From Paracoccus denitrificans (GTDB taxonomy: Bacteria > Pseudomonadota > Alphaproteobacteria > Rhodobacterales > Rhodobacteraceae), in the NCBI RefSeq assembly GCF_900100045.1, contig NZ_FNEA01000011.1, positions 62,001-126,000 on the forward strand: 64,000 bases of DNA, read 5' to 3'. Positions 40,518 through 59,375 of this stretch are shown here, in pieces. A program made the position numbers and the translations under genes. Below the pieces are notes generated by a model, which was not told the DNA's origin, ran no database searches, and saw only the letters and a list, made by a program, of their open reading frames with translations. The first letter of the stretch is position 1. Every line of letters starts with the position of its first letter.

Positions 40518-40545
40518 CGTCTCATCCTGTTTGTCGCGCGGCACG

Positions 40546-42027
40546 TCAGCCGAGCCCAACCTTGCTGGCATCGGTTTTAGCCTGCTCAACCAGTGCCGCC
40601 ATGCAAGAATGACTGACAGTAACCCCGGTCAGTCCCCGCTTCCGCCGGTCACGATACAGCGCACCCCCAACGGCCCGAGCCGCGATCAGCAGCCGCGAAA
40701 CCTTGACCCTGTTCGCACGAGCGACGGTCTGGATGGGGGTGCGAATTGCCTGTCCACCTGATGGCGACTTGCCTGCGCTGCACCAGTCATCGAGAAAGGA
40801 TTCGAGCGTCGCTGCCGAAAACCCGACCATCCTGTCGTTGAAGCGGTAATCGGGGACCAGCAGCCCGTCGCCGATCAGCCCCCGCACCACATCGACGCTG
40901 ACGCCAAGATGGCGCGCGGCATCCTGGGCGTTGAGCAGGTCCTTCAGCTTTGGTGCAAGATCGGCGATCAGGTCGGGATCGACCTCGGAACTGGCCCCGA
41001 TCCCGACCCTGAGGCCGTATTGGGCCTTCAGCACCTGCACGGTGATCTTCAGCCCGATTCCGTGACGGTTGCAGAGCGAACGCAGGGTCTTGGGCTCGAC
41101 CCCGCGTGTGCGGATGCCGAAAACCTTCTCCTGACCCGTGAAACGGAAGGTTTCCCCAACATATGCTGCCAGCACCGCACAGATGGGCCTGTAAGCGGGC
41201 TGATCCTTTCGGAAATAGAACTCGTTGAACGCACGGCCAAAGGCGTTGTGGTAATCGTTGCCCCGCCGGCCATGACCGATATGCGTGCGCAGGAAATCCT
41301 TGATCGCCGCCGGTCCTTCGATCAGCACCTCGGCCCCGAGATCCCCATGCTCGCGACGCTCATCGGCAGATATGCCTTTCCAGTCGCCTTGGGGACCGCG
41401 CATGGCCATGGCACCGAAGACCTCGGCGGTATGGATGGCGACATCGAGCTGAACATCGTCGATCCAGCGCCTGGAGTGCACACCGTCCAACCTCTCAGTG
41501 ATATAGTGCTCCAGCGCGGTCGGTCGACCTGGTTGCCAGGGCGCCGCCCGAGCTGCGACCAGCTTTGGAATCAAAGGCGACAGGTCCTGCTGCATCCGTG
41601 CCGCCTTGCGGGGCAGGACCGTCATGAGACGGAGACCGTGCTCGGCACAGACATGGTTCGCGTCGATCAGCCAATCCGTCCGGCCCAGGCAGGCAGATCG
41701 AAGATCGCCATCGGCCAATCCCCCCAGACAGGCCGGGCAGAACCGATAACGATCCGGGGCGCACTGAACCTTGTTGCTTGGATCGGCGCCGAGTTGCAGA
41801 CGCCGCGGATTGCTGGCGTCCAGGGCGCCACGAACAAGCGCCTGCGGATCACAGCCCGTATATCTGGCAAGGTTCTCGACGCTGTGCCTGTCGCCCATCA
41901 GCAGGGCTCGAAGGTCCAGATCGAAGAGGTGGACCAATGCCGCCAGGGATGACAGCCCGGACAGCCGGGCAATGCGGTATCCGTAGGAGGCGATGGTCTC
42001 ACGGGCATGCGGGGCGGGAAAGATCAT
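40546..42027 (-). CDS. tniQ: TniQ/TnsD-family target-selection protein
   Basis: The 493-residue protein starts with the TniQ domain (I-F-P-A-P-H-A-R-E-T-I-A-S-Y-G-Y-R, L-S-G-L) and a zinc-binding set (C-P-A-C-L near residue 96, with C-A-E-H and others after it). The C-terminal half has repeated HTH-like segments (V-S-V-D-V-V-R-G-L-I-G-D; V-K-V-S-R-L-L-I-A-A) likely to read DNA. ATG 42027 has GGGGGAGG upstream. TniQ links target recognition to the TnsC ATPase in Tn7-like and Tn5053-like elements. The stop lies next to the IS21 end; whether the C-terminus was trimmed is unclear. Confidence 0.88.
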   Translation of the reverse strand: MIFPAPHARETIASYGYRIARLSGLSSLAALVHLFDLDLRALLMGDRHSVENLARYTGCDPQALVRGALDASNPRRLQLGADPSNKVQCAPDRYRFCPACLGGLADGDLRSACLGRTDWLIDANHVCAEHGLRLMTVLPRKAARMQQDLSPLIPKLVAARAAPWQPGRPTALEHYITERLDGVHSRRWIDDVQLDVAIHTAEVFGAMAMRGPQGDWKGISADERREHGDLGAEVLIEGPAAIKDFLRTHIGHGRRGNDYHNAFGRAFNEFYFRKDQPAYRPICAVLAAYVGETFRFTGQEKVFGIRTRGVEPKTLRSLCNRHGIGLKITVQVLKAQYGLRVGIGASSEVDPDLIADLAPKLKDLLNAQDAARHLGVSVDVVRGLIGDGLLVPDYRFNDRMVGFSAATLESFLDDWCSAGKSPSGGQAIRTPIQTVARANRVKVSRLLIAARAVGGALYRDRRKRGLTGVTVSHSCMAALVEQAKTDASKVGLG

Positions 42028-42028
42028 C

Positions 42029-43027
42029 TTACCGCCTCCCCCTTGGTTTTCGCGACCGCCCCTTCGAACCCGTCGGAGGATCGGGCTCAAGCGGTGATCG
42101 CCCTGTATTCAGGCTCCGGAAATCCGGCACGAGGAATGGGTTCCGCCCCGCGACATCCCCGGTGCGTTCGGTATAGAACCGTGCGAAATCCCTGATGCCC
42201 AACGCCAGATGTCCGTCCGCCAGGGCGCGGGTGATCGCGCCGATGATCAGTTCGACCACGATTCCGAACTGTTCGCGCCCGGCATGGAGAAGCCGGGGCA
42301 CGAACTCCACATCCGCCAGATCCGGCGCCAGCGGCAGATCCGCAAGCCCGGCGTAGCGGGCGACCAGTTCTGCAACATCGTCGCAGGCATCGAACTCGGT
42401 CACCGGAAGAAAGCGGGTGATGAAGAAGCGGCGGGACAGTTGTGGATCCTGGGTCAGCAGATCATGCAGTTCCGGTGTCCCGCTGACGACCAGGTTGGTC
42501 GGCCAGTCCGGGATCTGCATGAGGCTCTTCAGGGCATTGATCACGCCCGCCTTCTCGACCTCCGAGCCTCGGCCACCCAATTCCTGGCCTTCATCGAGGT
42601 GGATCAGCCAGCATTTCCGCAGGTGCAGGTGAAAATTGACCAGCTCCCACATGCGCGACGCCGTGGTGTTGCTCTGGATCTGGAAAGCCAGGGCATGCAG
42701 GATCGCGCGTGCGAGGTCTTTCTGGGTGGCAGGCGTCGGCACCCGAATGGAGATCCAGCGGAACTCGCCAGATTCGGCGTCCGCAGCATCAATCCGGCGC
42801 AGGATCCGCTGGATGGCAGTGGTCTTGCCGCTGCCGGATTCCCCGATGACCGCGATCCCGCGTCCCTCGGCAGACTGTCCAAGATCCAGTTCGGCCTGGC
42901 GTTTGTCCATGATCTCGCGGAAAAGCCGCCGCACGGTTTCGTAGCCCGGATGGGCCACGAAATGCTTGCGCAGGGACACGGCGATCCGCGCGACCTGATC
43001 GGGCGCCGTGTGATGCTCATTCGTCAT
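42029..43027 (-). CDS. tnsC: TnsC/TniB-family AAA+ ATPase
   Basis: The 332-residue ATPase has Walker A G-E-S-G-S-G-K-T-T at residues 62-70, Walker B with L-I-H-L-D-E-G-Q near residue 140 and sensor 1 V-S-G-T-P near 180. TnsC forms filaments on target DNA and activates TnsB. ATG 43027 lies inside the tnsB stop region (11-base overlap) and is chosen over a 59-residue low-complexity extension. It ends one base before tniQ starts. Confidence 0.9.
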   Translation of the reverse strand: MTNEHHTAPDQVARIAVSLRKHFVAHPGYETVRRLFREIMDKRQAELDLGQSAEGRGIAVIGESGSGKTTAIQRILRRIDAADAESGEFRWISIRVPTPATQKDLARAILHALAFQIQSNTTASRMWELVNFHLHLRKCWLIHLDEGQELGGRGSEVEKAGVINALKSLMQIPDWPTNLVVSGTPELHDLLTQDPQLSRRFFITRFLPVTEFDACDDVAELVARYAGLADLPLAPDLADVEFVPRLLHAGREQFGIVVELIIGAITRALADGHLALGIRDFARFYTERTGDVAGRNPFLVPDFRSLNTGRSPLEPDPPTGSKGRSRKPRGRR

Positions 43028-45149
43028 CTTCGAACCTCCAGCCCTTGCGCGATGGCGGGGTGTCATCCGCAGGAGGGTCCTCCGGTGCGGGTGGCACCTC
43101 AGCATCATCTGCCTCGCTGCCCCCGACCTCAAACCCGCCCTGCAGCCAATCCGAGCCGGCCTGGGCCTGACCGACCGACGCAGCGGGCAGCAGGTGCAGG
43201 CCAAGACCGAGTGTCTGTTCCGCCCTGTCGATCTCCTCGGCGGTGAACGTCATCCGCCCAAGCTGCGCGGCGTTGGCCGCCTCGATGGAAAGCAAATCGA
43301 GCCGGCGCAGCCCGTCATGGAAGATTTCGGCGGAGATTGCCGCGCGTTCGCGGTTGTGATCCATGACGGTCCTGGCGAAGGCCGACCACTGGTAGAAGGA
43401 AACGCCCGAAAGCGCCCCGGACAGGTCATGGGCGGGATACCAGATTCCGCCGACCTCGACCGCGACCCAGCCAAGGTCAAGTGGATCGAACCGCAGCCGG
43501 GCCTTGTGCTGATGGCTGTGCTTGCGGGCATCGCGCAGCTGTTCGCAGGCGAAGTCCGCGCCGAACACCCGCACGCCGCGACCGGAAATGCTGCGTTCCA
43601 GCTCAATGCCGAAGATCGCCCGGCGATCCATCGCATCGACCGGGGCCGGAAGGCCATATTTGGCCACCAGCCGGTCCCAGCAATCGGCAGGGGTCTCACC
43701 CTGAAGCCCGGCGTGAGGGCGCTGGTGATAGACGTCCACGATATAGGTCACGAGCGCCGCCAGCAGGTCCTGATCGGTAAGAGAGGCTTCGGCTTCGGCA
43801 TCATAATCGCCCCGCTGCTCGGGGTTCGAGAATGTCCGCCCCCGGAATCGACTGACGAAATGCGTTGCAAAGGTCCCGAACAGGCGTTCGATGCGAGACC
43901 GGAGCTTGGCCACACCGCCGGGTGGATTGACCAGACGGGCAAGCAACCCGGCGCAGGTGATCTTGAAATCATCGCTGACGAAGGCTGAGCCCATGTCGGC
44001 TGCGACGGTCTCGGGCCGCCCACCCTGGTGCCAACCGTGACGACAGCTAAGGCCGACCGCGATAGCCGTCTTGTCAATCGTGACCGTTTCCATCGTGCGG
44101 ATGGCCGCTTCGGCACTGGTCGATCTGGACAGGGTGAGACCGACGACGCAACGCGTGGCACAGTCGATGGCGACGCAGATGACAAGGCGGATCACCTCGA
44201 GGGCCGCGATCTGCTGCGTCGTCAGCCGGTCGAGAAGACCGGCATTGGAAACCCATGCCATGAGGTCGACATCCCATTCGTCGATCTCGACCCGTTCCAT
44301 GGGCCGCAGGACCTGCACGCCATATTCGATGATCGCGAATTTCTTGTTGGCGGCATCGACACCCCACCGTTGCAGGTAGGTCTCGTAGGGGTCCATCCGC
44401 TTGATCGCGCGATAGACGGTGGAGCGGGATGGCGGCCGGAGTTCGGGCAACCCCCGCTCAGCACGGTCGCGGTTGAAATCCGCGTAGAAGTTGGTCGCGC
44501 GCTCGTGGATCTGATCGATGGTCTGGCGCAGCGGCGAGGCGTATTCCGCGATCAGCGCATCAAATGCCGCAAGCTCGCCGGGCAGCATCTGGCCTCTGCC
44601 TCCGCATCGATGCGTCTGAGGCACCAGAGCCATGATGCTGAAGCCGCTTCTTTCGTAGGCGCGTGTCCAGGTCAGCAACGTCTTGGCGCAAGGCGGCGTT
44701 CGAGAGGTTTCCATACGCCCCGCGCGCTTGAACCGTTTGCGAAAGCGCTTGCGCATATGACTTTCTACGGCAGCGATAACTGCTGGCAGAATGATGTTGA
44801 CCGAGGCCTCGTTTCGCCTGGCCAGCCCGGCCTTGATGCAGCGCAGCAACTCCTCGACGAACAATAGTCGCCACAGCGCGGTCTCTTGCTTGCCCTCGGG
44901 AAGATCTCGAAAATATTCGGGGAGTCCGTCAAGGTTGCGCTCCGCGGCTGTGCGTGCCGCCCCCTGCGGAATGTAGCGAAACCGCGGGCTGCGAAGCAGT
45001 TCCTCCAGCTCGCCATGGCTGATGCTGCGTGCAGGGTGCGGTGGCGCTGTTCCGATCAGCACGATTCCTTCGGGCTCATGCGATGCAAGCCGATATTCCA
45101 CGCCATCAAGGATGACGAGATCGAGGAGATTGATGTTGAAGTGTTTCAC
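43017..45149 (-). CDS. tnsB: TnsB/Mu-type DDE transposase
   Basis: The 710-residue transposase has N-terminal HTH segments, the catalytic triad D290 (V-E-I-D-E-W-D), D385 (V-A-A-D-M-G-S-A-F) and E421 (R-S-R-I-E-R-L-F-G) with 35 residues between the last two, and a beta-barrel Mu C-terminal domain. An acidic/proline-rich tail (last 50 residues) is probably the TnsC contact. All catalytic residues are kept. It follows tnsA by nine bases. Confidence 0.93.
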   Translation of the reverse strand: MKHFNINLLDLVILDGVEYRLASHEPEGIVLIGTAPPHPARSISHGELEELLRSPRFRYIPQGAARTAAERNLDGLPEYFRDLPEGKQETALWRLLFVEELLRCIKAGLARRNEASVNIILPAVIAAVESHMRKRFRKRFKRAGRMETSRTPPCAKTLLTWTRAYERSGFSIMALVPQTHRCGGRGQMLPGELAAFDALIAEYASPLRQTIDQIHERATNFYADFNRDRAERGLPELRPPSRSTVYRAIKRMDPYETYLQRWGVDAANKKFAIIEYGVQVLRPMERVEIDEWDVDLMAWVSNAGLLDRLTTQQIAALEVIRLVICVAIDCATRCVVGLTLSRSTSAEAAIRTMETVTIDKTAIAVGLSCRHGWHQGGRPETVAADMGSAFVSDDFKITCAGLLARLVNPPGGVAKLRSRIERLFGTFATHFVSRFRGRTFSNPEQRGDYDAEAEASLTDQDLLAALVTYIVDVYHQRPHAGLQGETPADCWDRLVAKYGLPAPVDAMDRRAIFGIELERSISGRGVRVFGADFACEQLRDARKHSHQHKARLRFDPLDLGWVAVEVGGIWYPAHDLSGALSGVSFYQWSAFARTVMDHNRERAAISAEIFHDGLRRLDLLSIEAANAAQLGRMTFTAEEIDRAEQTLGLGLHLLPAASVGQAQAGSDWLQGGFEVGGSEADDAEVPPAPEDPPADDTPPSRKGWRFEDDE

Positions 45150-48757: not shown

Positions 48758-49099
48758 CATGGTTAGAGGAGAAGATCGGCCCATTCCTGACGTTTGCTCT
48801 CGGCGATTGGTGCAGGGAATCTGCTGCAAAAGCGGCCATTCGACACTAGGCGCAGCATCTCGCTCCGCCGAATGTCCGAGAACTGGTAGTTTACTCGCTT
48901 GGTGGGAGGCAAACGATGCATCAGCGCTGGAATGATGGGCGGGCATCCTTGCTGAAGCTAGGGTGCATCGCTTAGCTACTCGGAAACGAACGAGTGACCT
49001 TGGGCAGGCGGACCCCTCGATCATGCGGTTGCCAAATCACTTCGTTTCGCGGCATAGTGCTGAACAAAAATAGAACTCGAAGGCGACAGGCATGAGGTC
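48758..49099. other. no gene recognised
   Basis: Neither strand has a plausible coding frame in these 340 bases between the hsdR remnant and the SocA-like gene. The promoter of the rightward pair at 49,100 should lie in the last 80 bases. Confidence 0.5.
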
Positions 49100-49651
49100 A
49101 TGAGTGGGCCATACGATCCGAGGGCAATCGCGAACCTCATGCTGGACGAGGCGGATCGGCGCGGCTGGAAAATCACGAACCTTGCCCTCCAGAAGCTGCT
49201 CTACTTCGCTCACGGCATACACCTAACCAAGACGAAGCGCCCGCTCGTGTCGGGCTACTTCGAGGCGTGGCAGTACGGCCCCGTGCATCCAGCCGTCTAT
49301 CGGGCGTTCAAGCCGTCAGGCTCCGCACCCATCATCAACCGGGCGGCCGCGAAAGACCCGCTCACAGGCAAGACGCGTGATCTGCCAAAGCCGACGGACC
49401 TTGAAGTCATCGACCTCGTGTCCGACGTGATGAGATCATACGGGCACCTCCCGCCTGGACGGCTGGTCGATCTGTCCCACGCGAAGGACTCGCCGTGGTC
49501 GGTGGTCGTGGACAAAGCACGAACAGATGTTGCTTTTGGGATGCGGATACCGGATGATGTGATCATCGCCCGATTCCGCCACCATAAGGTGTCGGTCGGC
49601 ACAAGTCCTCGTGCAGGAGAACCGCCTAGTGACGACGCGCCTTTTGCCTGA
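49100..49651 (+). CDS. SocA/Panacea-domain (DUF4065) protein, probable antitoxin
   Basis: The 183-residue protein has the Panacea/DUF4065 start: A-N-L-M-L-D-E-A-D, I-T-N-L-A-L-Q-K-L-L-Y-F-A-H-G, and F-E-A-W-Q-Y-G-P-V-H-P-A-V-Y. SocA of Caulobacter and many Panacea proteins act as antitoxins or adaptors for varied toxins. A GAGG site lies just upstream. The next gene overlaps its 3' end by about 23 bases, the usual layout of a toxin-antitoxin pair, and is convergent with the RT operon. Confidence 0.85.
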   Translation: MSGPYDPRAIANLMLDEADRRGWKITNLALQKLLYFAHGIHLTKTKRPLVSGYFEAWQYGPVHPAVYRAFKPSGSAPIINRAAAKDPLTGKTRDLPKPTDLEVIDLVSDVMRSYGHLPPGRLVDLSHAKDSPWSVVVDKARTDVAFGMRIPDDVIIARFRHHKVSVGTSPRAGEPPSDDAPFA

Positions 49652-50345
49652 CATTGACCTTGCGCGCATCGCGCCCCAACGCGATGACATGAAACGCAAG
49701 AGCTTGGAGCAGATGAAGGGCGGTTTCTCGACCTTCTCCTACAAGCCGGTGCGCGCTTGCTTCTCTGACATCTTCAACATCCAGCCCGACTTGGACCTAG
49801 GGTCAGCCGATCCGACGCCTTGGACTGTGATTGAGTCCGAGTTGCGGAAGCGCAGCAAGTCGGACGAGGAATTCAACTACAACCGGCGCGTTGCCCTTGG
49901 CCTGCACGACTTTGCGACTTCTGGTCGGGTCTTCGGGCGACGGCAGGAGTTCTTCCCGCTGTCGATGGGCATGGGGCAGAAAGTCACATTCTGGCTGCCG
50001 ATGATTCTCGCCATCGATGAGCAGGCAAGCGCCCTGTTTATCGAACCGCGCCGCACCAGAGGCTTAACCGCCGAAGGCCGCAGGTTCGCGTTATCGATGA
50101 TGCATGAGCGCATCCGGGCCGCTGACGAGGACTTTGCCGACGTTCGATTGACCATCGTGCAGTTTAGCGACCCGTCTGATGATCGGCGCGCGGTCAGGCT
50201 CCACACGGACGAGGGCGTTGAACTCTACTCCCGCGAGGATTTGGAGCAGATGGTGGCTTCGACCTATGAGATGTGGCGCGATGTGCTGGAAGAGCGCGAG
50301 AATAAGGCGCGGGGAAAGGCGACTGGTACTGGCCCGCTGATCTGA
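49629..50345 (+). CDS. unrecognised protein paired with the SocA-like gene, candidate toxin
   Basis: The 238-residue protein from GTG 49629 (AGGAGA at 49615-49620 provides the binding site; GTG 49611 is an alternative) has no domain I recognise. It has a central basic segment (R-K-R-S-K-S-D-E-E-F, R-R-V-A-L-G-L-H-D-F) and a mixed alpha/beta second half including I-L-A-I-D-E-Q-A-S-A-L-F and D-V-R-L-T-I-V-Q-F-S-D. Overlap with a Panacea antitoxin gene suggests it is the partner toxin. This rests on position only. Confidence 0.55.
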   Translation: MTTRLLPDIDLARIAPQRDDMKRKSLEQMKGGFSTFSYKPVRACFSDIFNIQPDLDLGSADPTPWTVIESELRKRSKSDEEFNYNRRVALGLHDFATSGRVFGRRQEFFPLSMGMGQKVTFWLPMILAIDEQASALFIEPRRTRGLTAEGRRFALSMMHERIRAADEDFADVRLTIVQFSDPSDDRRAVRLHTDEGVELYSREDLEQMVASTYEMWRDVLEERENKARGKATGTGPLI

Positions 50346-50435
50346 GGCATCATTTCAGTGCCAACCCGATCAGTCGGCTAGCGCCTTAGGCCTCGCGAGA
50401 ATAGATTGAGCGTATTCTAGGCGACTTCGCATGAG

Positions 50436-51347
50436 TTATCGAGCAAACCGCTCGCTCGCAGTTATTCTTGACACAGTTGGATGTCCACCGGTCGCTCCGT
50501 AGACCGCGTGATCGAGCCAGTCCTTTTCTCCGTCGAGTACATCAGCATCAATTTCGCGCCACCAATAACGGTGCGTCGGATCCCATCGATATCCCCGGCT
50601 CTTGAGTAGATCTTTGGCATTGAAGGGAGCCCCAATGGCCGCAATGCGAAAGTTCGGACGATCGCAGCGTTCGAGAAGATGGGACATTATCGTGCGGCCG
50701 TCTCCCGCCACGCTGCCTAGAAGCGTTGCCAGGGCGTGAACATCCTGTTCGGCGCGATGTCCCTTAAAATACCACCCAGCTTGGAACAGCAGATGTCCAA
50801 GCGCGCGTCCGTCGAAGCCAAGAGTGAGCCAATCTAGTTGAGTGAGGCTGCATCCCCACGCTTGATGCTGAAGCGCTGGGAAGCGAACGTCGACGAACGG
50901 TCGATCAAAGGCCGCGTTGTGTGCAATAATGACGTCAGCTTCTCCGAGCTGCGCTACTATACTCTCGTCGTCAAAGGCACATCCCGCGAGGTCTGCGTCT
51001 GTAAGCCCAGTAAGCAGGGTCAGTCGTGGAGGCATCGACCGGCCCGGATCTTCGCGCCAAGAGCGGGGATGCTCCATCTCGATGATCCGGCCCCGCGCAT
51101 CGACGCTCAGCCGTTCGATCGCAATTTCCACAAGCCGATCCGTGGTAGGGTCCAGCCCTGTCGTTTCCGTATCGATAATAGCGACAATCCGCATTTCGGT
51201 GGATCGAGGGGCGAGTTCATCCACTTGTCCGGCAAAACTTAGTTCGCGCAAGACCCGATACCCAGGAATCTGCGATAGCCGGTGAGCGAGATACTCTCCC
51301 AAATCCGTGGAACTGGCGCGAGAATTGAAGAGATGGGGAAACTTCAT
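50436..51347 (-). CDS. DEDDh 3'-5' exonuclease (DnaQ-like) with C-terminal extension
   Basis: The 303-residue protein contains an exonuclease domain with all DEDDh residues: D59 and E61 (I-I-D-T-E-T-T-G), D148 (A-H-N-A-A-F-D), H197 and D202 (H-R-A-E-Q-D). The first 50 residues are an extra N-terminal region. The C-terminal 80 residues contain F-N-A-K-D-L-L-K-S-R-G-Y-R-W-D, a motif I associate with some DnaQ-like proteins. It is the last of four coupled genes; TGATG joins it to the nitrilase gene. It may trim DNA made by the reverse transcriptase. Confidence 0.9.
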   Translation of the reverse strand: MKFPHLFNSRASSTDLGEYLAHRLSQIPGYRVLRELSFAGQVDELAPRSTEMRIVAIIDTETTGLDPTTDRLVEIAIERLSVDARGRIIEMEHPRSWREDPGRSMPPRLTLLTGLTDADLAGCAFDDESIVAQLGEADVIIAHNAAFDRPFVDVRFPALQHQAWGCSLTQLDWLTLGFDGRALGHLLFQAGWYFKGHRAEQDVHALATLLGSVAGDGRTIMSHLLERCDRPNFRIAAIGAPFNAKDLLKSRGYRWDPTHRYWWREIDADVLDGEKDWLDHAVYGATGGHPTVSRITASERFAR

Positions 51348-52255
51348 CAGACGAGCCTCGCCAGCTTCTCGAGCAGCGCCACCGAGAACTGGTAGCCGGG
51401 CGGCAGGCTTTTGAACTCCTTGATGCCATCCTTGAGCGGGTCACCTCCCTTCTGATGCAGTCCCAGCCTTTCGACGGGTAACTCGATAATCTGGGCGGTG
51501 GCAAGCCCAGGTCCAGCATGCTGATAGATCGTTCGGCGCTCGGATAGACGGTAAGGAGATACGGCGAGTGAACCACCGAAATGCCCGCAATTGCAAATGA
51601 TCACATTACAGAACACCATGCGTGCGACCGCTTCAGCGACGTGGCGAAAAGACGTCGCATCTTTATTGAGCGCTAAGATGAAGAGGTGCTGCACCTTTCC
51701 ACGATACATCGCGATCCGCTCGAGATCGAGGAAGTCGTAGCAGACCATCACGCCGAACGCGCCAATTTCGTCCCCATCGAACAGCCACACTGACGGATCG
51801 CGCTTAAATTCACACGAGATACTTTTGAGCTTCTTGTCTTCCTCCGGTGCCGCATAGGTTTTGCCGATGCGCCGTGTTGTCGCCTTGGCCCCCATCTTCC
51901 GATTGCGCCACCTCTTAGGAACAATGAGCAGTGCCTCATTGTGAACCTCGCCAGGCTTACCTCCGACGCGATAATCGAGCCCGGCAATCACAATCGACTG
52001 CATCTTCCCGGCCATTCTACGTAGGGTCGCCTCATAGCCGGTGGGCACCGAGAGTTCTGGCAGCACTATGATGTCCGGTGGCGGTTGCTCTTGGTGGAAA
52101 GCCGCGAAGAATCCCCGGATCTCCGTGATAGCTCTTTCCTCCTCGCACGGCGACATCTTAGGGACGGCCGCCCAAGCAGCAGCGGGATCGAGGGAGGTCT
52201 GAATGATGCCAACCTTGAGAAAGGGGGTGAGCGTTGGGCTAGGTGGAGTTGTCAT
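51347..52255 (-). CDS. nitrilase/carbon-nitrogen hydrolase superfamily protein
   Basis: The 302-residue protein has the Glu-Lys-Cys triad: E67 (I-V-L-P-E-L-S), K132 (R-I-G-K-T-Y-A-A-P-E-E) and C172 (F-G-V-M-V-C-Y-D-F). It should therefore be an active C-N hydrolase. Nitrilase domains are known partners of defence reverse transcriptases (DRT type 1), where I recall them fused to the RT. Here the domain is a separate gene overlapping the RT stop by ATGA. The substrate is unknown; a nucleotide or NAD-like amide would be a guess. Confidence 0.88.
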   Translation of the reverse strand: MTTPPSPTLTPFLKVGIIQTSLDPAAAWAAVPKMSPCEEERAITEIRGFFAAFHQEQPPPDIIVLPELSVPTGYEATLRRMAGKMQSIVIAGLDYRVGGKPGEVHNEALLIVPKRWRNRKMGAKATTRRIGKTYAAPEEDKKLKSISCEFKRDPSVWLFDGDEIGAFGVMVCYDFLDLERIAMYRGKVQHLFILALNKDATSFRHVAEAVARMVFCNVIICNCGHFGGSLAVSPYRLSERRTIYQHAGPGLATAQIIELPVERLGLHQKGGDPLKDGIKEFKSLPPGYQFSVALLEKLARLV

Positions 52256-55200
52256 AGTCCGAGCTCTTCCTCGCTTGGCATGCCATCGATAAACGCGCCC
52301 ATCTGTCGGAGTCGAACCGGAATAAGTTGTCGGGGTTTATGCTCTAGGACGGTCATCTGGCTCTTCTGCAATACGTCCTGTGCCTGCTTGATTTGCGCCA
52401 GCAGGGCGTCAGGGCTGTCGATAAGCTGATCGAACTCGGTGTCATCGGCTGACTGCCCCTTCGCATTACCGAACAACATGGGAAACTGTGTCAGCATCGA
52501 GGTCTCTCGACTTCGTGGGAGCAGACATGCCCGAAGGATAGAGATGGTGAAGGACGAGATCGTAAGCCGCTCGATATCGTGGGCTACGATTTCGATCAGG
52601 CTCCGCTCCTGGCCGCGGATGTTCCAGGCTGCCGGCAGGACGAAGCTCTGACGCAATATGCCCCAGAGAATCTGACCGAGCGCACGGAGGCGGCGTGGCC
52701 AAGCGCGGTCGTCGACCGATACCAGCACCTCATGATAGCGATAGTCCCTCATTCCGGGGGAATGGGCAACCCTGCTACGGCGTGTCAGGCTTTGCCAAGC
52801 CTCCCATGTGATCTTATCGCCCGCGTCGGTCGCCTCTGGCAGCGCCCTCCAATCGGCAGGTAGCCATTCGAATGGAATGCCTACGTCCTCAGGATGAAGC
52901 CTATCTAGATAATCTATGTCGGGCCCTTCGGGCTCGAAGATCGGCTCAAGGATCTGCCGAACGATCTCTAGCGCAGTCCATTCTGATCGGCGTGGATCAC
53001 TGGAGTCCATCACCGCTGTCTTCTCGGTCCATTCCACAAGTGACAGCGTCGCTCGAGAGTTACCTACCCGCGCACGAACGTCGGCTATGACCGGGGCGAT
53101 GTTCGGTAGCCCCGCAAAGCGATCAGGCTGCGTTCGTGCTGCGTCGAGCAGCCAGCCCTCGTCGTCACTCTTAAGAAGGAACGGATCCTCGGCCAAGCGC
53201 TTCCAGGCGGCAGGGGGCAAGAGCCGGGGATAGCGTCTCAGACCGTTCCAGTCCTCGGGGCGGCTAGGTTCATAACTCTTGGCGGCCGTCGCCCAGTAGA
53301 CGGGCGGCTGCATGGGATGTGCGCCGGTGGTCGTGAACAGCCAGTGGAACCATACCCCCAGCGGCACTCCAGTCATTTCGAACAGCACGACGAAGCCAGG
53401 TGCTGCCGCCTTTTCGGGCCCTATCGCTCGGACCAGCATCTCATTCGAGAGCGTGGCGTCCGTCATCGCTATCTCAGTCGCCCCAAGCATTAGTGCGGCC
53501 TCGAATGCCCGACGCGCATTCCACTGGAACTGTTGCAATCGGACAGCTTCGCTTGCGCGGGGGACGAAAGCCTCGAGATCCGCGCGCACCAGATTCTCAA
53601 GAAAGGCTCGCGCCGCACCACGTTCGCGGTGGAGTAGGTCAGGCTGAGAGAGGGCAACGCTGGCAGTTAGGACATGTCGAGCGAGGACGTGTAACGCCAT
53701 CGCTCCCAGATACGACTGCAGGAACTTGTGATCATCGTCGGTGTGGTCGTCCATCCAGCGACGCATGCGGTCAAAACCATTGTGTCCGGTCACCCGGCAG
53801 TAATCCAGCAAACGCGTGAAAAGCCTGACCTTGTCAGGATGGGTGGCAAAAGCCTCAAAGAGCAGCCCGAAATGACGCTTTACGAGTGCAGCCCAGTTTT
53901 CCTGCTCAGTTTTTTCGAGTTCAGCGATGCGGTCAAGAAATGGCTTGACCATAGCGGGTTCCAGATCTGCGGGTGCCTTGCCACGGGTGAGCGCCTTGAG
54001 CCGGCGATGTTCGAGCAGAAGCTCCTCGTTTGGACGAAACAAGGCGGGCGTGAGGTTGGCTATCCGCGCAGCGGCGAAGGCCATGCGAGTATCGCCGCGA
54101 ATTTCGTTGTCAGGGATATTGGCGAGCAATAGCCATTCGAGTTGCTCAAGCCGCTGACTACGGCCAGCATCGGTCAGTAAGTCAAAATCGGTCGCTGCCA
54201 ACATCGAAACCTGCGCTAAGGTCCGCGTCATAAGCTGGGTGGGCTTGCGACCATCAACAGACGCGGCAGCGATCGCGACGGATCGAAGCTCCGATAGTTT
54301 CTTAGGCTCGACTGTCTCGTCGGGGTGAAGCAGCCATTTTAATTCCGCCGGACTGTATTTCTCGCGCTCGATCTCTACACCGATGCCGTGTCGTGCGAGC
54401 AGATGGGCGTATTCGGTCATCCACTCTAGGAGCCGGTCGAAATCGTATGCGAGGAACTCATGGTCGTCGACGAAGCGAAAATGAGCAATGTTGCGGTGTT
54501 GCAGCAGCAGCTTCTCGACCTCACGATCGATTGGGAGCATGGCGACGTTCGCGAGGAAGCCACCGACGAACAAGCCTGTCGGGATGCCATCGAACGATCC
54601 GACGGGCGCAATAGGATCGACTTTGGCCTTGAGAGCTTGGTCGAGGCCTCCGTCGTCGACCTCAAACCGAAGCATTGCAGAGAGAAGTGCTGAGAGGCGG
54701 GGTTCGTCAGAAAACCCTTCTACCAGAGTATCGAAGCCTCGTTGGATCGCCGAAACCTGCACCGACGGGTAGAATTTACTCAGGTCCAGCGATGCAGCAT
54801 AGAGCGTATTGTCGCCTGACGCTGGACGATTCCAGAACGTTGGGTGGAAGTAGGCAAGTTCGTCGCCCTGCTCGAGGGCCAAGCGTTCGCCGGCATCAAG
54901 ATCGTCCTCCTCAATGCTTTTCCCGACCATCTTGCGAGCGGTGAGTGAGATGTGGCGCCGGAAGAGCGGCCAACTATGTTTGAAATGTCGGTAAAGATAA
55001 CCTGCTGAGTGTCGATAGGGCCCAATATTTAGCTTGGAGTTTTGCCCTTCAGCGGTTTCCTCCTCATACCATGCAGCACGATACAGCCGATTTCCGTAGC
55101 TCCACGCCGGCATCCTCTGATCCAATTCCGGCCCCAGAACATTGACGAGAGCGATCCAAGCGACTTGATCGCGAACGGAAATCTCAAAGTATTGTCTTAG

Positions 55201-55440
55201 CCGTGGCTTTCCCTCCTTGTCCGGCTTTTTCGGTTGGGGAACCAACCTGATTGGTCTGTTTCTCCAGTTCCCTGTCTCGAAGTCGTGCCGAATAGCGGTC
55301 AGTTCGGCTTCGAGATTCAGCTCGAAGGCCGCAATCTCAGCCTGATCAAAAAGTCCGTCTGCCATACGATAGCAGCGTCGCGCCTTGCGCCATGCCCAGA
55401 GCAAGTTTTCTGGCATGAGGAGAAGATTGAACCAGGTCAT
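52252..55440 (-). CDS. unknown-group/defence-type reverse transcriptase
   Basis: The 1062-residue protein has an RT core in its first 400 residues. Motif A is A-S-L-D-L-S-K-F-Y-P-S-V with D219, motif B-like is G-I-P-T-G-L-F-V-G-G-F near 285-295, and motif C is F-V-D-D with D325/D326. The N-terminal part includes W-S-Y-G-N-R-L-Y-R, seen in unknown-group RTs. Residues about 400-1060 are mostly helical, of unknown role, as in the UG/Abi class. No group II intron maturase domain or retron partner is present. It is the second gene of the four-gene unit (ATGA overlaps on both sides). Confidence 0.9.
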   Translation of the reverse strand: MTWFNLLLMPENLLWAWRKARRCYRMADGLFDQAEIAAFELNLEAELTAIRHDFETGNWRNRPIRLVPQPKKPDKEGKPRLRQYFEISVRDQVAWIALVNVLGPELDQRMPAWSYGNRLYRAAWYEEETAEGQNSKLNIGPYRHSAGYLYRHFKHSWPLFRRHISLTARKMVGKSIEEDDLDAGERLALEQGDELAYFHPTFWNRPASGDNTLYAASLDLSKFYPSVQVSAIQRGFDTLVEGFSDEPRLSALLSAMLRFEVDDGGLDQALKAKVDPIAPVGSFDGIPTGLFVGGFLANVAMLPIDREVEKLLLQHRNIAHFRFVDDHEFLAYDFDRLLEWMTEYAHLLARHGIGVEIEREKYSPAELKWLLHPDETVEPKKLSELRSVAIAAASVDGRKPTQLMTRTLAQVSMLAATDFDLLTDAGRSQRLEQLEWLLLANIPDNEIRGDTRMAFAAARIANLTPALFRPNEELLLEHRRLKALTRGKAPADLEPAMVKPFLDRIAELEKTEQENWAALVKRHFGLLFEAFATHPDKVRLFTRLLDYCRVTGHNGFDRMRRWMDDHTDDDHKFLQSYLGAMALHVLARHVLTASVALSQPDLLHRERGAARAFLENLVRADLEAFVPRASEAVRLQQFQWNARRAFEAALMLGATEIAMTDATLSNEMLVRAIGPEKAAAPGFVVLFEMTGVPLGVWFHWLFTTTGAHPMQPPVYWATAAKSYEPSRPEDWNGLRRYPRLLPPAAWKRLAEDPFLLKSDDEGWLLDAARTQPDRFAGLPNIAPVIADVRARVGNSRATLSLVEWTEKTAVMDSSDPRRSEWTALEIVRQILEPIFEPEGPDIDYLDRLHPEDVGIPFEWLPADWRALPEATDAGDKITWEAWQSLTRRSRVAHSPGMRDYRYHEVLVSVDDRAWPRRLRALGQILWGILRQSFVLPAAWNIRGQERSLIEIVAHDIERLTISSFTISILRACLLPRSRETSMLTQFPMLFGNAKGQSADDTEFDQLIDSPDALLAQIKQAQDVLQKSQMTVLEHKPRQLIPVRLRQMGAFIDGMPSEEELGL

Positions 55441-56474
55441 GCTATGCCTCGCCGCGATCGGAGATAATCGTTCAGATCATTGACCTCTGGTGGCAACTGC
55501 TTGGTAACTACCGTAATACCGCGCGCAGCAAGCCGGTCGCTAAGCCTCTTGGCCAGACTACGCCCCGACCGATCAGCATCGGCGAATATCGCGACGTTAC
55601 GGCCTATGAGGCGGTCGATTATATCAGTTCCAAGGTTGCGCATCGCGCCAAGAAGCCCAATCGGAAGCATGCCAAGTTCATGCGCCGAGAGCACGTCAGT
55701 GATCCCTTCACAGATAGTGATGGTCGACCCTGGCTTGGCGAGCGCATCAAGATTGTAGGGAGGCGGCAGGAGCTTCGCCGGGCAGAACCAACGATATTCC
55801 TTGCCGTCGTCCGCGCGACGAGCCTGGAGGTAGGTGACTGTGCCGTCCTGCAAGAAGGGAAAGAGTAGATAGTTCGACGGCAAGCAAAGTAGTGGCCCAT
55901 AGCGCCCCTGCATGACAAGGCCCGCTTCCTCGAGACGCGGCATTCCGAAAGCCGATAGCGCGCGTCGAAACAAGCTGGTGCGATCACCAATCTGACCAAC
56001 TCGGAAGTGTGCAATGGTCTCGGCGCTGAAAGCTCGTCGTTGGAGATAAGCTCTGCCGCTCGCGGAAAGCGGCGACTGATCGAGAATCCAACCGTAGACT
56101 TCGGGGGCCATGCCGTGAGACGAAGACTGCACCGGAACCGGCAAAGTTTGCTGGATGGTCGATGGTCGGCGTCTTGATCGGGGCTGGGCGCTGATGCTGT
56201 TGAGATAGTTATCATCCAGCCAGCGGCAGGCCGCCAAGAAGTCGAGATTGTCCATCGCCATGACGAGGTCGATTACACTTCCGGAACGCTGACAGCCGAA
56301 GCAGGAGAAGCCATTACTGATCGAACGCAGCGAGAAGGAAGGCCGTTGATCCGGGTGTCCAGGTAGTCGGCAACGTCCGGTTCCCCTCGGCGAGAGTGCG
56401 AAGCCGAGATCCGCTGCGACCGTGGCAATCGGGATCGCCTTGATCCGTTCGAGATCATACCTCTTTCGTGACAA
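55437..56474 (-). CDS. DnaG-like primase (CHC2 zinc finger plus TOPRIM)
   Basis: The 345-residue protein has a CHC2 zinc-binding domain (C35, H40, C58, C61), a middle region (about 120-245) like the DnaG RNA-polymerase subdomain, and a TOPRIM domain with E256 (I-C-E-G) and D299/D301 (F-A-D-A-D-R-S-G). It is shorter than chromosomal DnaG because the helicase-binding C-terminus is absent, a form common in mobile elements. The start is TTG 56474: an in-frame TGA lies nine bases upstream and AGGGG precedes it. It opens the operon and overlaps the RT gene by ATGA. Confidence 0.92.
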   Translation of the reverse strand: MSRKRYDLERIKAIPIATVAADLGFALSPRGTGRCRLPGHPDQRPSFSLRSISNGFSCFGCQRSGSVIDLVMAMDNLDFLAACRWLDDNYLNSISAQPRSRRRPSTIQQTLPVPVQSSSHGMAPEVYGWILDQSPLSASGRAYLQRRAFSAETIAHFRVGQIGDRTSLFRRALSAFGMPRLEEAGLVMQGRYGPLLCLPSNYLLFPFLQDGTVTYLQARRADDGKEYRWFCPAKLLPPPYNLDALAKPGSTITICEGITDVLSAHELGMLPIGLLGAMRNLGTDIIDRLIGRNVAIFADADRSGRSLAKRLSDRLAARGITVVTKQLPPEVNDLNDYLRSRRGIA

Positions 56475-56559
56475 TCTCAGTCACCCCTGACGCTGAACGT
56501 CGAGCGGATTGACCACCCTACTAACGCTGTTGATGCTATTCGCCCTACCGATAGTTGTC

Positions 56560-56640
56560 GCCATGCTCCCCCCTGCACAATACAATCAACTGACTGGTCA
56601 CCTTGCAAGCCAGTCGCCACATTGGCTCCTTAATTTTTAC
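56560..56640 (-). promoter_or_regulatory. putative promoter and operator of the primase-RT operon
   Basis: On the reverse strand, TTGCAA is followed after 17 bases by TTGTAT, resembling -35 and -10 elements. An inverted repeat GACTGG (56592-56597) / CCAGTC (56610-56615) brackets the -35 element, so a repressor could block the promoter. The leader between promoter and start is about 100 bases and may hold structured RNA. Confidence 0.45.
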
Positions 56641-56975
56641 CGACAGCAGAAACCATGTCCGGTCTCCATCTCAGGAAGCCGATAAGCAGTCAGACTGCCA
56701 GGGGCTCTCTAAACCGGCCATTCGCGCACAATGCAGCGAACGGCCGCTTACCGCCCTTTTTGTCTCCGTCACTGGCAGTAACAGCGAAGGCGAGAACCGC
56801 TGCGATAGTTGAGGTCTCCGCGCTTCTCGCCTTCGCTGGCTCTGAGACCGGCACTTCTGGAGCTACTGGCGCCGAATGTCATGCAACCGGGTGCCGAAGT
56901 TGTACGCAACCGAGTGCCGAACCGAGTGAGAACCAGCACAGGCCACAATCAAACATCCAATGCAGCGTTCCTGAC
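56641..56975. other. gene-free stretch with hairpin and short tandem repeat
   Basis: No gene is recognised. A perfect 15-base inverted repeat (56782-56796 with 56824-56838) spans 57 bases. Two 16-base direct repeats differing at one base start at 56883 and 56906 (GCAACCGGGTGCCGAA and GCAACCGAGTGCCGAA), with a partial third copy after them. These look like the ends or binding sites of a lost mobile element. Confidence 0.5.
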
Positions 56976-57608
56976 GACTCTGTTGCACAAATCGGCTGAT
57001 GGTCGAGGTTCCCCCATCCCCGGACAGACTTATCCTACGGCCTCTGTGACGGGTATGCCGAGCGCGGTGTAGTCGTTCAGGACGGCTATGCGGATCTGGA
57101 TCTCGGCAACCTGGCGATCAAAGTCTCGCGCCATGAGGCGCTGACCCAGCAGCTTTACACAATGCATCTTGCTCTCGACGCGGCTTCGGCGGTGATAGCC
57201 GCTCCAGTTTCGCCAGAGCGCCCGCCCAAGATATTTTGACGCCCGCAAGGCTTCGTTTCGTGCGCGCACTCCGGGCGTGTTCGGCTTCCATGGTTTTGCG
57301 TTCTTGCGGGGTGGGATGACGGCGGCAGCGCCTCGAAGCGCCATGCCGAACAAGGCCTTCATTGAAAGGCAGGTCTGGATGGCGGCGTCGCTGTAGGTTT
57401 GCTGACGGCCACGCCGACCTGTCGGCACGGCATCCCAGGTCGTGTCGGTGTCAAACCAGATCGTCAGCGAGCCGCGGCGCTTGAGCGCTTCATTGTAGGC
57501 CGGCCAGTTCCTGGTCTTGTAGGTCGGAGGTGTGGGTCTGCTCATGACGCCCAGCTACCATGCTGGATTCACGAAATGAATTCCCGCAGGGGTTTGCGCA
57601 ACAGAGCC
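56976..57608 (-). mobile_element. internally deleted IS5-family element (MITE-like)
   Basis: Imperfect terminal repeats GACTCTGTTGCACAAA and, inverted, GGCTCTGTTGCGCAAA enclose 633 bases, less than the usual 800-1000. The transposase gene inside has lost its middle part. It could be moved in trans by a full-length relative. A related 5' fragment lies at 35,521. Confidence 0.75.
57030..57545 (-). pseudogene. IS5-family transposase, in-frame deletion of the catalytic centre
   Basis: The 171-codon frame joins the normal N-terminus (Y-N-E-A-L-K-R-R-G-S-L-T-I-W-F-D) to the C-terminal part (V-I-P-P-R-K-N-A-K-P-W, then R-S-R-V-E-S-K-M-H-C). The junction is at about residue 72 (M-A-L-R-G-A-A-A). The first two catalytic Asp regions are missing and only the final Glu region remains, so it cannot be active, although it keeps an open frame. 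Confidence 0.85.
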
Positions 57609-57772
57609 CATCAGCGGCATAATATTCATCAATCGCAATGGTTTGCGCTGGTGCGATGCGCCGAAGGAATACGGACCAGCCAAGACCCTCTACAACCGTT
57701 GGAAGTGCTGGAGCGACAACTGAGTCTTCACCCGGATCATGGTCGGCCTGGCCGCTGAGCGTGCCGTCCTGT
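57609..57772 (+). pseudogene. fragment of a second IS5-type (IS427-like) transposase
   Basis: The forward strand reads I-I-F-I-N-R-N-G-L-R-W-C-D-A-P-K-E-Y-G-P and K-T-L-Y-N-R-W-K-C-W-S-D-N, then an in-frame TGA, then V-F-T-R-I-M-V-G-L-A-A-E. This is the N-terminal region of an IS427-group orfA. Both ends are missing. The IS5-type element at 56,976 lies immediately beside it and may have inserted into it. Confidence 0.7.
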
Positions 57773-57774
57773 GC

Positions 57775-58851
57775 CTAGTCTTCCCAATCCTCATCAAGGT
57801 TCATTCCACCAATGTCACCGGCCCCATAGAACGCTTGCCGGTGAAGGTGGATGTTAACCCGCGCCGCCACGTTCTTCTGCGGGGTATCGATGCCGATTTC
57901 TTCGTTGATTGTGGTCTGATAGATCATCTCTTCGCCCCAGATGTTAAGATTCCCATCCCAGATGTCGCTATTCTCAATCAGCTCTTCGGCGGCGGCTTTA
58001 AAGTCCCACTCTTCATCCTTATTCCGGACGATATACCAAGCGCCGTCCGTGGGGTAATCGATGCGGTCCAGCGGGCGGCTTGCGAAGCCACTCTCTTCAC
58101 GCGGTCGGGTACTCCCCCAGTCACCATAGATGACTCGCGTACGGTTAGACCTGCGCGAGATTTGGTCGATTAGCTGACGGTTGCTGAATGGAACCGGCGT
58201 GATGCCGCTAAATGCAGAGAACATCTTCGGAATGGAAGTACATGAAAGCACCACAGGCACAGCCGCATCAATCTCTTGCAGGCTTTCGGCAATCACGCCC
58301 TCGAACCACACCGAAAGAGTCAATGGGTCCCGAGTCCAGCCTCCCTCTAGGATGATCGCGAAGTCAGCAGCACCCCCAGCCGCGAAGGCCGCAACGATTT
58401 CTTGGATGTTGCTGGGGAACCGATCCCGCACGATCCTCATGCAGTACGGACGCCCCAGCTCCTGAATGGCTTCGATTTGCCTTCTTAGGTCAGCTTCACT
58501 CTGTCCCCTAGACTGGATACAGGGCCACGCATTCTCATGCCGCCCCACAAACTCGACCCAGTTAGCGAAGGCGTTATCCGACTCCATCAACCGCGCCAAT
58601 TCCTGCTGCGGTCCGCTCTCAAGGTTCGTAAACTGATAGTCCCGGTCTATGTCTAGGAAGTAGTTGCGATTGGGGAATGCCCGCTCAACGCGGTCAATAG
58701 CCCGGTCTAAGGTGAGGGAATTGGCCCAAGGGGCGAGAAGGATGCAGGGCGTCATCCTATCCTTTGTCGCCCCCGGCAAGAACTCAAGCCCGTTCATTTC
58801 GCTGGCGCGGATAGCCAAAGTTGGAACGTAGCTCTTATTCTCTAGGACCAT
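57775..58851 (-). CDS. beta-family protein (PF14350-like)
   Basis: The 358-residue protein resembles the beta protein family named after a phage protein: Y-V-P-T-L-A-I-R-A-S-E at the start, I-L-E-G-G-W in the middle, and a C-terminal region with Y-G-D-W-G-S-T and W-Y-I-V-R. The biochemical function of the family is not established. It is the last gene of a three-gene leftward unit, 11 bases after the ImmA/IrrE gene. Confidence 0.75.
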   Translation of the reverse strand: MVLENKSYVPTLAIRASEMNGLEFLPGATKDRMTPCILLAPWANSLTLDRAIDRVERAFPNRNYFLDIDRDYQFTNLESGPQQELARLMESDNAFANWVEFVGRHENAWPCIQSRGQSEADLRRQIEAIQELGRPYCMRIVRDRFPSNIQEIVAAFAAGGAADFAIILEGGWTRDPLTLSVWFEGVIAESLQEIDAAVPVVLSCTSIPKMFSAFSGITPVPFSNRQLIDQISRRSNRTRVIYGDWGSTRPREESGFASRPLDRIDYPTDGAWYIVRNKDEEWDFKAAAEELIENSDIWDGNLNIWGEEMIYQTTINEEIGIDTPQKNVAARVNIHLHRQAFYGAGDIGGMNLDEDWED

Positions 58852-58862
58852 GGTTCACTCAC

Positions 58863-59375
58863 TCATGCTTCTGCGAAGGTCGACAACCGGATTTCCATGG
58901 CAGCTTTGGACACTTGGAACCGCGCCGCAAGGCTTTCTATCGTGGCCTCTGTGACTACGCCGCCAAATTCGTCACGAAGCACCTGTTCGACAAGCGCCAT
59001 CGGCATAACAATGTCCGCCGCCAGACGATTGGCTTCATACTCAATGCGCTCCGGCTCCCCGGAGCGATACAGGACGTTATCCTTGATCCCGTCCGGCGAG
59101 CTGTCAATGACCGCCTTGTGCAGGAAGAAATGGGACAGCTCATGTGCGATGGTGAACCTCTGGCGCTCACGCGCCTCATGCCGGTTCACGCGAATGGTGT
59201 AGTTCCCATCTTCCTTCATGATTTGACCGGAAACACCAGTGCTCATGCTGGACACCTTGATAGAAACGCCCAGCTCCTTTGCGAGTTGCCCGAGCTTTAC
59301 AGGGTATTCTGCAAGATACCGTTCAAGGATTTTCTTGGCAGGCCCTTCAATTCGATTGTACTCACGTGAAGTCAT
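58863..59375 (-). CDS. ImmA/IrrE-family zinc metallopeptidase
   Basis: The 170-residue protein has the zinc motif H-E-L-S-H (H78, E79, H82) and the third ligand E114 in E-Y-E-A-N-R-L-A-A-D-I-V-M-P. ImmA/IrrE peptidases cleave repressors or antitoxin-like proteins in phages, ICEs and defence loci. A C-terminal HTH-like segment (I-E-S-L-A-A-R-F-Q-V-S-K-A-A-M-E-I-R) follows. It lies between a membrane protein gene and the beta-family gene, with 11-base gaps on both sides. Confidence 0.9.
   Translation of the reverse strand: MTSREYNRIEGPAKKILERYLAEYPVKLGQLAKELGVSIKVSSMSTGVSGQIMKEDGNYTIRVNRHEARERQRFTIAHELSHFFLHKAVIDSSPDGIKDNVLYRSGEPERIEYEANRLAADIVMPMALVEQVLRDEFGGVVTEATIESLAARFQVSKAAMEIRLSTFAEA

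What the first reader, a model, noticed from the sequence alone, without database searches (positions are those of the whole stretch)
50436..56474. Four-gene primase / reverse transcriptase / nitrilase / exonuclease operon: candidate new defence system
Four genes run leftward with no gap: a DnaG-like CHC2/TOPRIM primase, a 1062-residue RT with D219 and F-V-D-D catalytic motifs, a nitrilase with intact Glu-Lys-Cys, and a DEDDh exonuclease with all five residues. Overlaps ATGA, ATGA and TGATG imply coupled translation and fixed stoichiometry. Unknown-group RTs with a nitrilase domain are known anti-phage systems (DRT type 1). I do not recall a DRT with its own primase and a proofreading-type exonuclease. 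Together they could make an RNA primer, copy it to DNA and trim it, with the nitrilase as effector or nucleotide-modifying enzyme. The location among integrases, Tn7-like genes and toxin-antitoxin pairs fits a defence island.
Basis: partly seen in the sequence, partly recalled or inferred. Interest (0 to 1): 0.93.

Follow-up and report, generated by a model that had tools for sequence, protein, structure and literature searches.

The report
Primase–RT–nitrilase defence operon with exonuclease
Four tightly packed bacterial genes look like an anti-phage device in which a primase and a DNA-writing reverse transcriptase control a nitrilase that is probably the killing part, plus a DNA-trimming enzyme that relatives swap for other kinds; the core genes were already catalogued, but how they work is untested.

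Summary
The four ORFs are real and intact. The RT is UG6 (PADLOC RT_UG6, E 9e-277); primase and nitrilase match PADLOC's RTasDnaG-like and RTasNitrilase, so the core parts were catalogued before. My searches listed no experimental study of UG6. All 35 related loci with three whole core genes keep the order PRI-RT-NIT on one strand. RT and nitrilase are split homologues of one-gene DRT1 (best PDB sequence match of both: 9YFD); the nitrilase keeps DRT1's catalytic Cys and its C-terminal K-x-x-P motif. Two observations go beyond the catalogue. (1) The fourth gene is an optional, exchangeable exonuclease: 18 of 43 related loci have a 3'-5' exonuclease of one of three families (DnaQ-, SbcB/ExoI- or PolB-exo2-like), on either side of the core. 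I read it as a built-in version of the host-exonuclease brake reported for DRT9, DRT3 and DRT4. (2) Ten related RTs have lost the active site; the two with known surroundings also lack the primase, and the one readable nitrilase there is intact. This ties the primase to DNA synthesis and points to the nitrilase as output. Defence is supported by homology; 'new four-gene system' is only partly right.

The parts
55437..56474 (-). PRI: short DnaG-like primase (CHC2-type zinc ribbon and TOPRIM), RTasDnaG-like
   Evidence: PADLOC RTasDnaG-like E 1.2e-80; four Zn ligands and five TOPRIM acids in 42 of 42 rows; fused to the RT in L030 and P0110
52252..55440 (-). RT: UG6 reverse transcriptase; RT fold over about residues 1-405, then a long mostly helical region
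   Evidence: PADLOC RT_UG6 E 9.1e-277; closest solved sequence DRT1 9YFD, profile E 4.7e-10; model pLDDT 85, pTM 0.88; fold match over 2-405
51347..52255 (-). NIT: stand-alone nitrilase-superfamily protein, probable effector; E67, K132, E139, C172; C-terminal K282-x-x-P285-P286-G287
   Evidence: PADLOC RTasNitrilase E 3.5e-104; DRT1 9YFD E 7.9e-12 with C172 on C1116; C-terminal motif aligned with DRT1 K1219-A1223
50436..51347 (-). EXO: DnaQ-like DEDDh 3'-5' exonuclease (PRK09182 family), optional accessory
   Evidence: NF006615 279.4 bits against a cut-off of 207, E 2.4e-83; DEDDh in 13 of 13 operon-linked copies, window included
54073..54207 (-). RT residues S412 to A456: stretch behind the palm with S412, E446, R452, F455 and A456, which change in the RTs that lost the active site
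   Evidence: comparison of up to 235 rows with ten active-site-less rows

Best explanation
This is a split-gene relative of DRT1: a UG6 defence-associated RT whose nitrilase effector, primase partner and exonuclease are separate genes. Proposed working: (1) inferred from DRT1/DRT5: the RT makes short protein-linked, largely untemplated single-stranded DNA; S412 (or T405/T407) is the best candidate for the priming hydroxyl. (2) Inferred from DRT1: this DNA gathers RT and nitrilase into an assembly in which the nitrilase is poised while its C-terminal K-x-x-P-P-G lid keeps it shut. (3) Inferred from fusions and co-loss: the primase works on or with the RT's DNA, most likely laying a primer or second strand on it. 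(4) Inferred from DRT9, DRT4 and DRT3: the exonuclease trims the 3' end of the RT's DNA and keeps the device silent, a built-in version of the host-ExoI brake. (5) Inferred: when phage proteins protect or remodel that DNA, the nitrilase opens and stops the cell. Shown here: gene set, order, conserved active sites, homology, exchange of the exonuclease, and the co-loss at two loci. No activity was measured.
For: DRT1 homology: RT profile 4.7e-10 and nitrilase 7.9e-12 to 9YFD, each the best of 177,635 PDB sequences; profile-profile probability 99.6% and 99.5% with four DRT1 proteins. Lid: DRT1 K1219 and A1223, reported essential (PMC13275509), fall on K282 and P286; K282 and P285 in 42 of 42 rows, P286 in 40. 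Core: 35 of 35 loci with three whole genes in one order and strand; primase in 40 of 43 loci; PRI-RT fused in L030 and P0110. Co-loss: 10 of 225 RT relatives with a letter there lack D219; they are 56-100% identical to L032, the next relative 40%. The two with context (L032, L040) have no primase in the held DNA, and their genomes show one DnaG-like hit each, in 605-609 aa frames. L032's nitrilase residues are intact. Of six conserved hydroxyl residues only S412 is replaced in most of the ten (9 of 10). Exonuclease: 18 of 43 loci, with DnaQ-bearing L022 inside an otherwise SbcB-bearing branch. Precedents: DRT9 lethal without ExoI, DRT3 without RecBCD (PMC13174585); DRT4 product protected from host exonucleases by phage ORF55 (PMC13314766).
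Against: Nothing was measured. DRT1's priming Ser402 has no conserved hydroxyl at its aligned place in UG6. S412 turns into Thr, which still bears a hydroxyl, and T405/T407 are kept in 8 of 10. Two of the ten active-site-less RTs keep both Asp of the FxDD motif. The co-loss rests on two loci; L040 is a metagenome bin cut inside the RT. 25 of 43 loci showed none of the three exonucleases, and the five such loci of the exonuclease-rich branch also lack ExoI elsewhere, so a brake is not always visible. In a DGR, ExoI acted without its nuclease activity (PMC12875486).
Confidence: 0.55

Rival explanations
1. Primase-primed reading: UG6 gave up the protein primer of DRT1. The DnaG-like primase makes a short RNA on single-stranded DNA, the RT extends it, the exonuclease proofreads or trims, and the nitrilase is the effector.
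For: No conserved hydroxyl at the DRT1 Ser402 place; primase residues in 42 of 42; PRI-RT fusions and co-loss. A PrimPol-RT hybrid with proofreading exonuclease is known to me only as a title in the reference list of PMC13174585.
Against: DRT1 and DRT5, the tested relatives, are protein-primed (PMC13275509); S412 and T407 are near-invariant hydroxyls in RTs with an active site.
Confidence: 0.2
2. The primase is a sensor rather than a synthesiser: it binds single-stranded DNA at phage forks and unlocks the nitrilase assembly, as the T4 helicase Dda is needed for DRT1.
For: Dda is required for DRT1 against T4 (PMC13275509); a UvrD-type helicase gene overlaps the primase gene in L003/L008.
Against: TOPRIM acids kept in 42 of 42 argue for catalysis; at L032 and L040 it is missing together with RT activity.
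Confidence: 0.15
3. The exonuclease is a passenger of defence islands with no role in this system.
For: It is optional. Of 19 family members looked at outside UG6 loci, one is beside a DRT9 RT (L062) and two overlap SIR2-HerA (L084, L085); 18 had no RT by the two RT queries used in the stretch held.
Against: Gaps of -7 to +8 bases (as the script counts) to the core in ten of the twelve DnaQ loci; three exonuclease families in the same slot; only 4 RNase_T genes in the window's 5.19 Mb genome.
Confidence: 0.2
4. Not defence: a DNA repair or replication operon.
For: Primase, polymerase and exonuclease are replication-type functions.
Against: Found in 2 of 295 genomes of the host's family, its own included; 18.5 kb at 99.94% identity shared by records of two genera; neighbours include type III restriction (L007) and MzaC (L015); the nitrilase is homologous to the DRT1 effector.
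Confidence: 0.05

Closest known systems
UG6 RT with RTasNitrilase and RTasDnaG-like (PADLOC-DB; Mestre et al. 2022 is not held and known here only from the reference list of PMC13275509)
   Same: RT, nitrilase and primase each match the family models
   Different: No RT-associated model matched the DnaQ-like exonuclease; RTasSbcB was the only RT-associated exonuclease model that came up in my scans
DRT1 (PDB 9YFD; PMC13275509)
   Same: Homologous RT domain and following R-x-D-T-x-x-F-A-A motif (to about residue 480); homologous nitrilase with catalytic Cys and C-terminal lid motif
   Different: One fused gene; priming Ser402 not conserved in UG6; homology of the second half of the RT protein is not shown (global alignment only)
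DRT9 with host ExoI, DRT3 with host RecBCD (PMC13174585), DRT4 with phage ORF55 (PMC13314766); passages seen
   Same: RT-made DNA held down by an exonuclease (inferred for UG6)
   Different: There the exonuclease is the host's; here it is in the operon. No ncRNA was found here
DRT7/UG10, RT fused to a primase-polymerase (passages of PMC13213688 and PMC8934634)
   Same: RT plus primase in one device
   Different: UG6's primase is of DnaG/TOPRIM type and mostly a separate gene; a nitrilase is present
SIR2-HerA
   Same: In L084 and L085 the same exonuclease family overlaps the HerA gene
   Different: No RT or nitrilase found there

Membership tests
UG6 (PADLOC RT_UG6) | Match to the RT_UG6 model over most of its length | tested here: met
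   E 9.1e-277, positions 2-915 of 925
UG6 (PADLOC RT_UG6) | Associated nitrilase and DnaG-like primase | tested here: met
   RTasNitrilase 3.5e-104, RTasDnaG-like 1.2e-80
DRT1 | RT and nitrilase fused in one protein | tested here: not met
   Separate genes in the window; RT and NIT on separate ORFs wherever both were found
DRT1 | Priming serine S402 | tested here: not met
   No conserved hydroxyl at the aligned place; nearest conserved are T405, T407, S412
DRT1 | C-terminal lid motif with K1219 and A1223 | tested here: met
   K282 and P285 in 42 of 42, P286 in 40 of 42; A1223 is Pro here, so the motif is kept rather than each residue
[quoted passage not shown]
   Needs purified protein
Class 3 DRT mechanism | DNA-dependent filament with shut nitrilase | not testable with these tools
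   Only single chains were predicted
Class 2 DRT / retron | Conserved ncRNA beside the RT | tested here: inconclusive
   No Rfam match at 49000-58000; blastn similarity to L002 ends 8 bases inside and to L007 11 bases before the primase start; forced alignment of 300 bases upstream gave 58% and 47%; unknown RNAs not excluded
PRK09182 / NF006615 exonuclease | Score over the curated cut-off | tested here: met
   279.4 bits against 207
DRT7/UG10 | Primase-polymerase fused to the RT | tested here: not met
   Separate gene; CHC2 and TOPRIM domains, DnaG model TIGR01391 E 1.4e-24, below its cut-off
Anti-phage defence system | Reduces phage plating | not testable with these tools
   No experiment here; my paper searches listed none for UG6

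The most novel reading that the evidence does not exclude
UG6 is a self-contained DNA-writing immune device that carries its own brake: the RT, with its primase, writes a DNA that arms a nitrilase, and an operon-borne 3'-5' exonuclease erases it until infection. Alphaproteobacterial hosts, mostly without ExoI, have recruited different exonuclease families for this more than once, and a side group has discarded DNA writing and primase and kept the dead RT as a scaffold for the nitrilase.
Probability: 0.35. Interest if true: 0.82.

Novelty: new variant of a known kind. Interest (0 to 1): 0.62.

Why it matters
Recent DRT work shows, system by system, that host nucleases hold RT-made DNA in check. 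Some UG6 operons appear to carry that check themselves, in exchangeable forms, so the rule becomes testable in one cassette. The group of RTs without an active site, primase-less where its surroundings are known, is a natural mutant that separates the probable effector from DNA synthesis and narrows the candidates for the priming residue to S412, T405 and T407. Pairing an immune RT with a DnaG-type primase also gives a second case, beside DRT7, in which to ask why such an RT needs a primase.
Full report
What is there. The window holds four minus-strand genes without gaps: PRI 55437-56474, RT 52252-55440, NIT 51347-52255, EXO 50436-51347, joined by ATGA, ATGA and TGATG. PRI's TTG start is the tool's. 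Each gene has dN/dS of 0.03-0.16 against L002 and L007.

Identity. The RT matches PADLOC's RT_UG6 at E 9.1e-277; the next model, Drt1a, is at 4.3e-19. NIT matches RTasNitrilase (3.5e-104) and PRI RTasDnaG-like (1.2e-80), all filed under DRT. EXO is over the cut-off of NF006615/PRK09182 and has only generic PADLOC hits. PMC8934634 (passages seen) gives one UG6 RT with a nitrilase neighbour and lists dnaG among occasional neighbours of RTs in general; the terms SbcB, DnaQ and exonuc do not occur in its main text. Mestre et al. 2022 is not held. Searches for UG6 listed that paper alone or none; a search for RT, nitrilase, primase and related words listed 15 of 18 papers, of which I opened passages or sections of three.

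Recurrence. A scan of one genome per species gave 44 loci; L045 is a 28-residue match and is dropped, leaving 43. By their record titles they include Alpha-, Beta- and Gammaproteobacteria, Campylobacterota, Bacteroidota, Elusimicrobiota, Verrucomicrobiota, Chlorobiota, delta/Desulfobacterota groups and one Firmicute (Acetivibrio). PRI is found in 40 of 43; it is missing in L032 and L040, and L033 has a 27-residue remnant. NIT is found in 40 of 43; the other three (L036, L040, L043) run into a contig end or the end of the DNA held. All 35 loci with three whole genes have PRI-RT-NIT in order on one strand, 34 as separate genes and L030 as a PRI-RT fusion. P0110 is another fusion; whether the two arose apart was not tested. 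In L026, L027 and L034 the RT reads in two pieces. In the host's own family 2 of 295 genomes have it, the window's included. L003 (labelled Sphingobium) and L008 (labelled Sphingomonas) share 18.5 kb at 99.94%, so it moves.

Relation to DRT1. Among 177,635 PDB sequences the best match of the RT profile (4.7e-10) and of the nitrilase (7.9e-12) is DRT1, 9YFD. Profile comparison with four DRT1 proteins fetched gives probability 99.6% for the RT (global mode, so the second half of the protein is not evidence) and 99.5% for the nitrilase. PMC13275509 (introduction, results and discussion read) shows that DRT1 and DRT5 make DNA without template on the protein, that DRT1 uses Ser402 and forms filaments in which the C-terminus shuts the nitrilase, and that K1219A and A1223F remove defence. 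The printed 9YFD sequence has K1219 and A1223 in K-T-Q-P-A-G; the window's nitrilase has K282-S-L-P285-P286-G287, with K282 and P285 in 42 of 42 rows and P286 and G287 in 40. Cys1116 falls on C172. Ser402 (in G-T-S-S) falls where UG6 has no conserved hydroxyl.

Active sites. PRI: four zinc ligands and five TOPRIM acids, 42 of 42 rows. NIT: E67, K132, E139, C172, 42 of 42. RT: D219, D325, D326, 39 of 40. EXO: D, E, D, H, D in 13 of 13 operon-linked copies (rows include the window, and for PRI, NIT and RT the duplicate L047).

RTs without an active site. The one exception is L032. L040, 59% identical to it over 791 columns, has lost motif-A Asp and the first Asp of FxDD. A protein search with L032 (120 hits) brought further relatives. 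Of all 227 RT relatives held, 225 have a letter at D219: 215 Asp, ten not (P0121-P0129, P0133; P0121 and P0129 are the L032 and L040 proteins). These ten are 56-100% identical to L032, the next relative 40%; no tree was made of them. Eight of the ten also lost D325; P0127 and P0128 keep both Asp. Of 60 columns conserved at 97.5% or more in the other rows (up to 235), 15 are kept in at most three of the ten: R82, Q83, R161, D219, F223, P225, G294, V324, D325, K361 and, behind the palm, S412, E446, R452, F455, A456. Six conserved hydroxyls were examined: Y115 and Y344 stay in 10 of 10, S962 in 8 of 8, T405 and T407 in 8 of 10, S412 in 1 of 10, turning to Thr in nine. L032 and L040 show no primase by tblastn in the held DNA (9-10 kb upstream of the RT). 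Their genomes have one DnaG-like hit each, E 1e-34 and 9e-43 in 605-609 aa frames, taken as the replicative DnaG, while UG6-type primases in three genomes searched alongside score 7.6e-82 or better. L032's nitrilase residues are intact; L040 is cut before it. My reading: primase and RT synthesis were lost together and the effector kept. It rests on two loci.

The exonuclease slot. DnaQ-like EXO lies after NIT in L002-L008 and L022 and before PRI in L011, L015, L021 and L026: 12 of 43, besides the window. SbcB/ExoI-like genes (PADLOC RTasSbcB) lie beside the core in L012, L013, L018 and L033, and two genes away on the other strand in L019. L020 has a PolB-exo2-like exonuclease. That is 18 of 43. 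DnaQ- and SbcB-like genes were sought in all ORFs of the loci, PolB-exo2 only among 20 scanned neighbours. The DnaQ and SbcB kinds share the RNase_T domain, so they are different families of one superfamily, not unrelated. L025 has a PDDEXK/Cas4-like gene and L023 a DUF2779 gene, not counted. In the RT tree (without L027, L034, L040, L043) all 18 fall in one 25-row branch; without the window and the duplicate L047 that is 18 of 23. DnaQ-bearing L022 sits inside a branch whose other exonuclease genes are SbcB-like. The window's genome has 4 RNase_T genes in 5.19 Mb.

Meaning of the slot. PMC13174585 (a preprint; passages seen) reports lethality of DRT9 without ExoI and of DRT3 without RecBCD. 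[quoted passage not shown] In PMC13275509 native and ExoI-treated DRT1 DNA is about 17-30 nt. An operon-borne exonuclease fits the same role. Neither the window's genome nor G007, where the same family lies beside a DRT9 RT with a SLATT gene, has an ExoI C-terminal domain. Against this: five hosts of the same branch without the exonuclease lack ExoI too, and in a DGR ExoI acted without its nuclease (PMC12875486, passages). Outside UG6 I looked at 19 members of the family: L062 is beside DRT9, L084 and L085 overlap the HerA gene of SIR2-HerA; no other RT was found in the stretches held with a UG6 profile and a DRT9 query, and the other surroundings were not annotated.

Structure. The RT model (pLDDT 85) has an RT fold over about 1-405 and a long helical part; the nitrilase model (pLDDT 90.5) is a standard nitrilase fold.

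Verdict. Real, conserved, and a catalogued but, as far as my searches show, untested kind. Mended on checking: the exonuclease kinds are no longer called unrelated, and the odds of the sensor rival were lowered from 0.2 to 0.15 so that the odds sum better; the other odds stand.

Noticed in passing
window 36291-45149: Leftward tni-type module: TniB 42029-43204, TniQ 40546-42090, Mu-transposase-C-like 38864-40381 (below its Pfam cut-off), serine recombinase 37333-38319, IS110 36291-37307.
   Followed up: partly
window 49100-50345: SocA/SocB toxin-antitoxin pair on the plus strand, converging on EXO.
   Followed up: no
window 57030-57545: Short DDE-transposase ORF upstream of the primase.
   Followed up: no
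window 57775-59375: Beta_protein (PF14350) gene next to an ImmA/IrrE-type peptidase gene that matches PADLOC capP.
   Followed up: no
L084:2639-6949, L085:6035-10273: PRK09182-type exonuclease gene overlapping the end of HerA in two SIR2-HerA operons, a possible third gene there.
   Followed up: partly
L062:1123-6818: DRT9 RT and SLATT genes with a converging exonuclease gene of the EXO family and, beyond it, a 715-aa protein with a weak RTasDnaG-like match; the genome has no ExoI C-terminal domain.
   Followed up: partly
L003:5482-8856, L008:5482-8856: 1124-aa UvrD-type helicase gene overlapping the primase gene; the L003 copy matches PADLOC RTasHel at 2.4e-39.
   Followed up: no
L037:8243-8983: 246-aa RTasTM-type gene overlapping the primase gene.
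   Followed up: no
L012:14377-14961, L019:12063-12671, L022:15193-15810: About 200-aa protein family near UG6 loci; the L012 copy has no Pfam or PADLOC match.
   Followed up: no
G1007:C31:79319-80332: DnaG-like match inside a 2531-aa open frame, perhaps a UG29-type giant RT.
   Followed up: no
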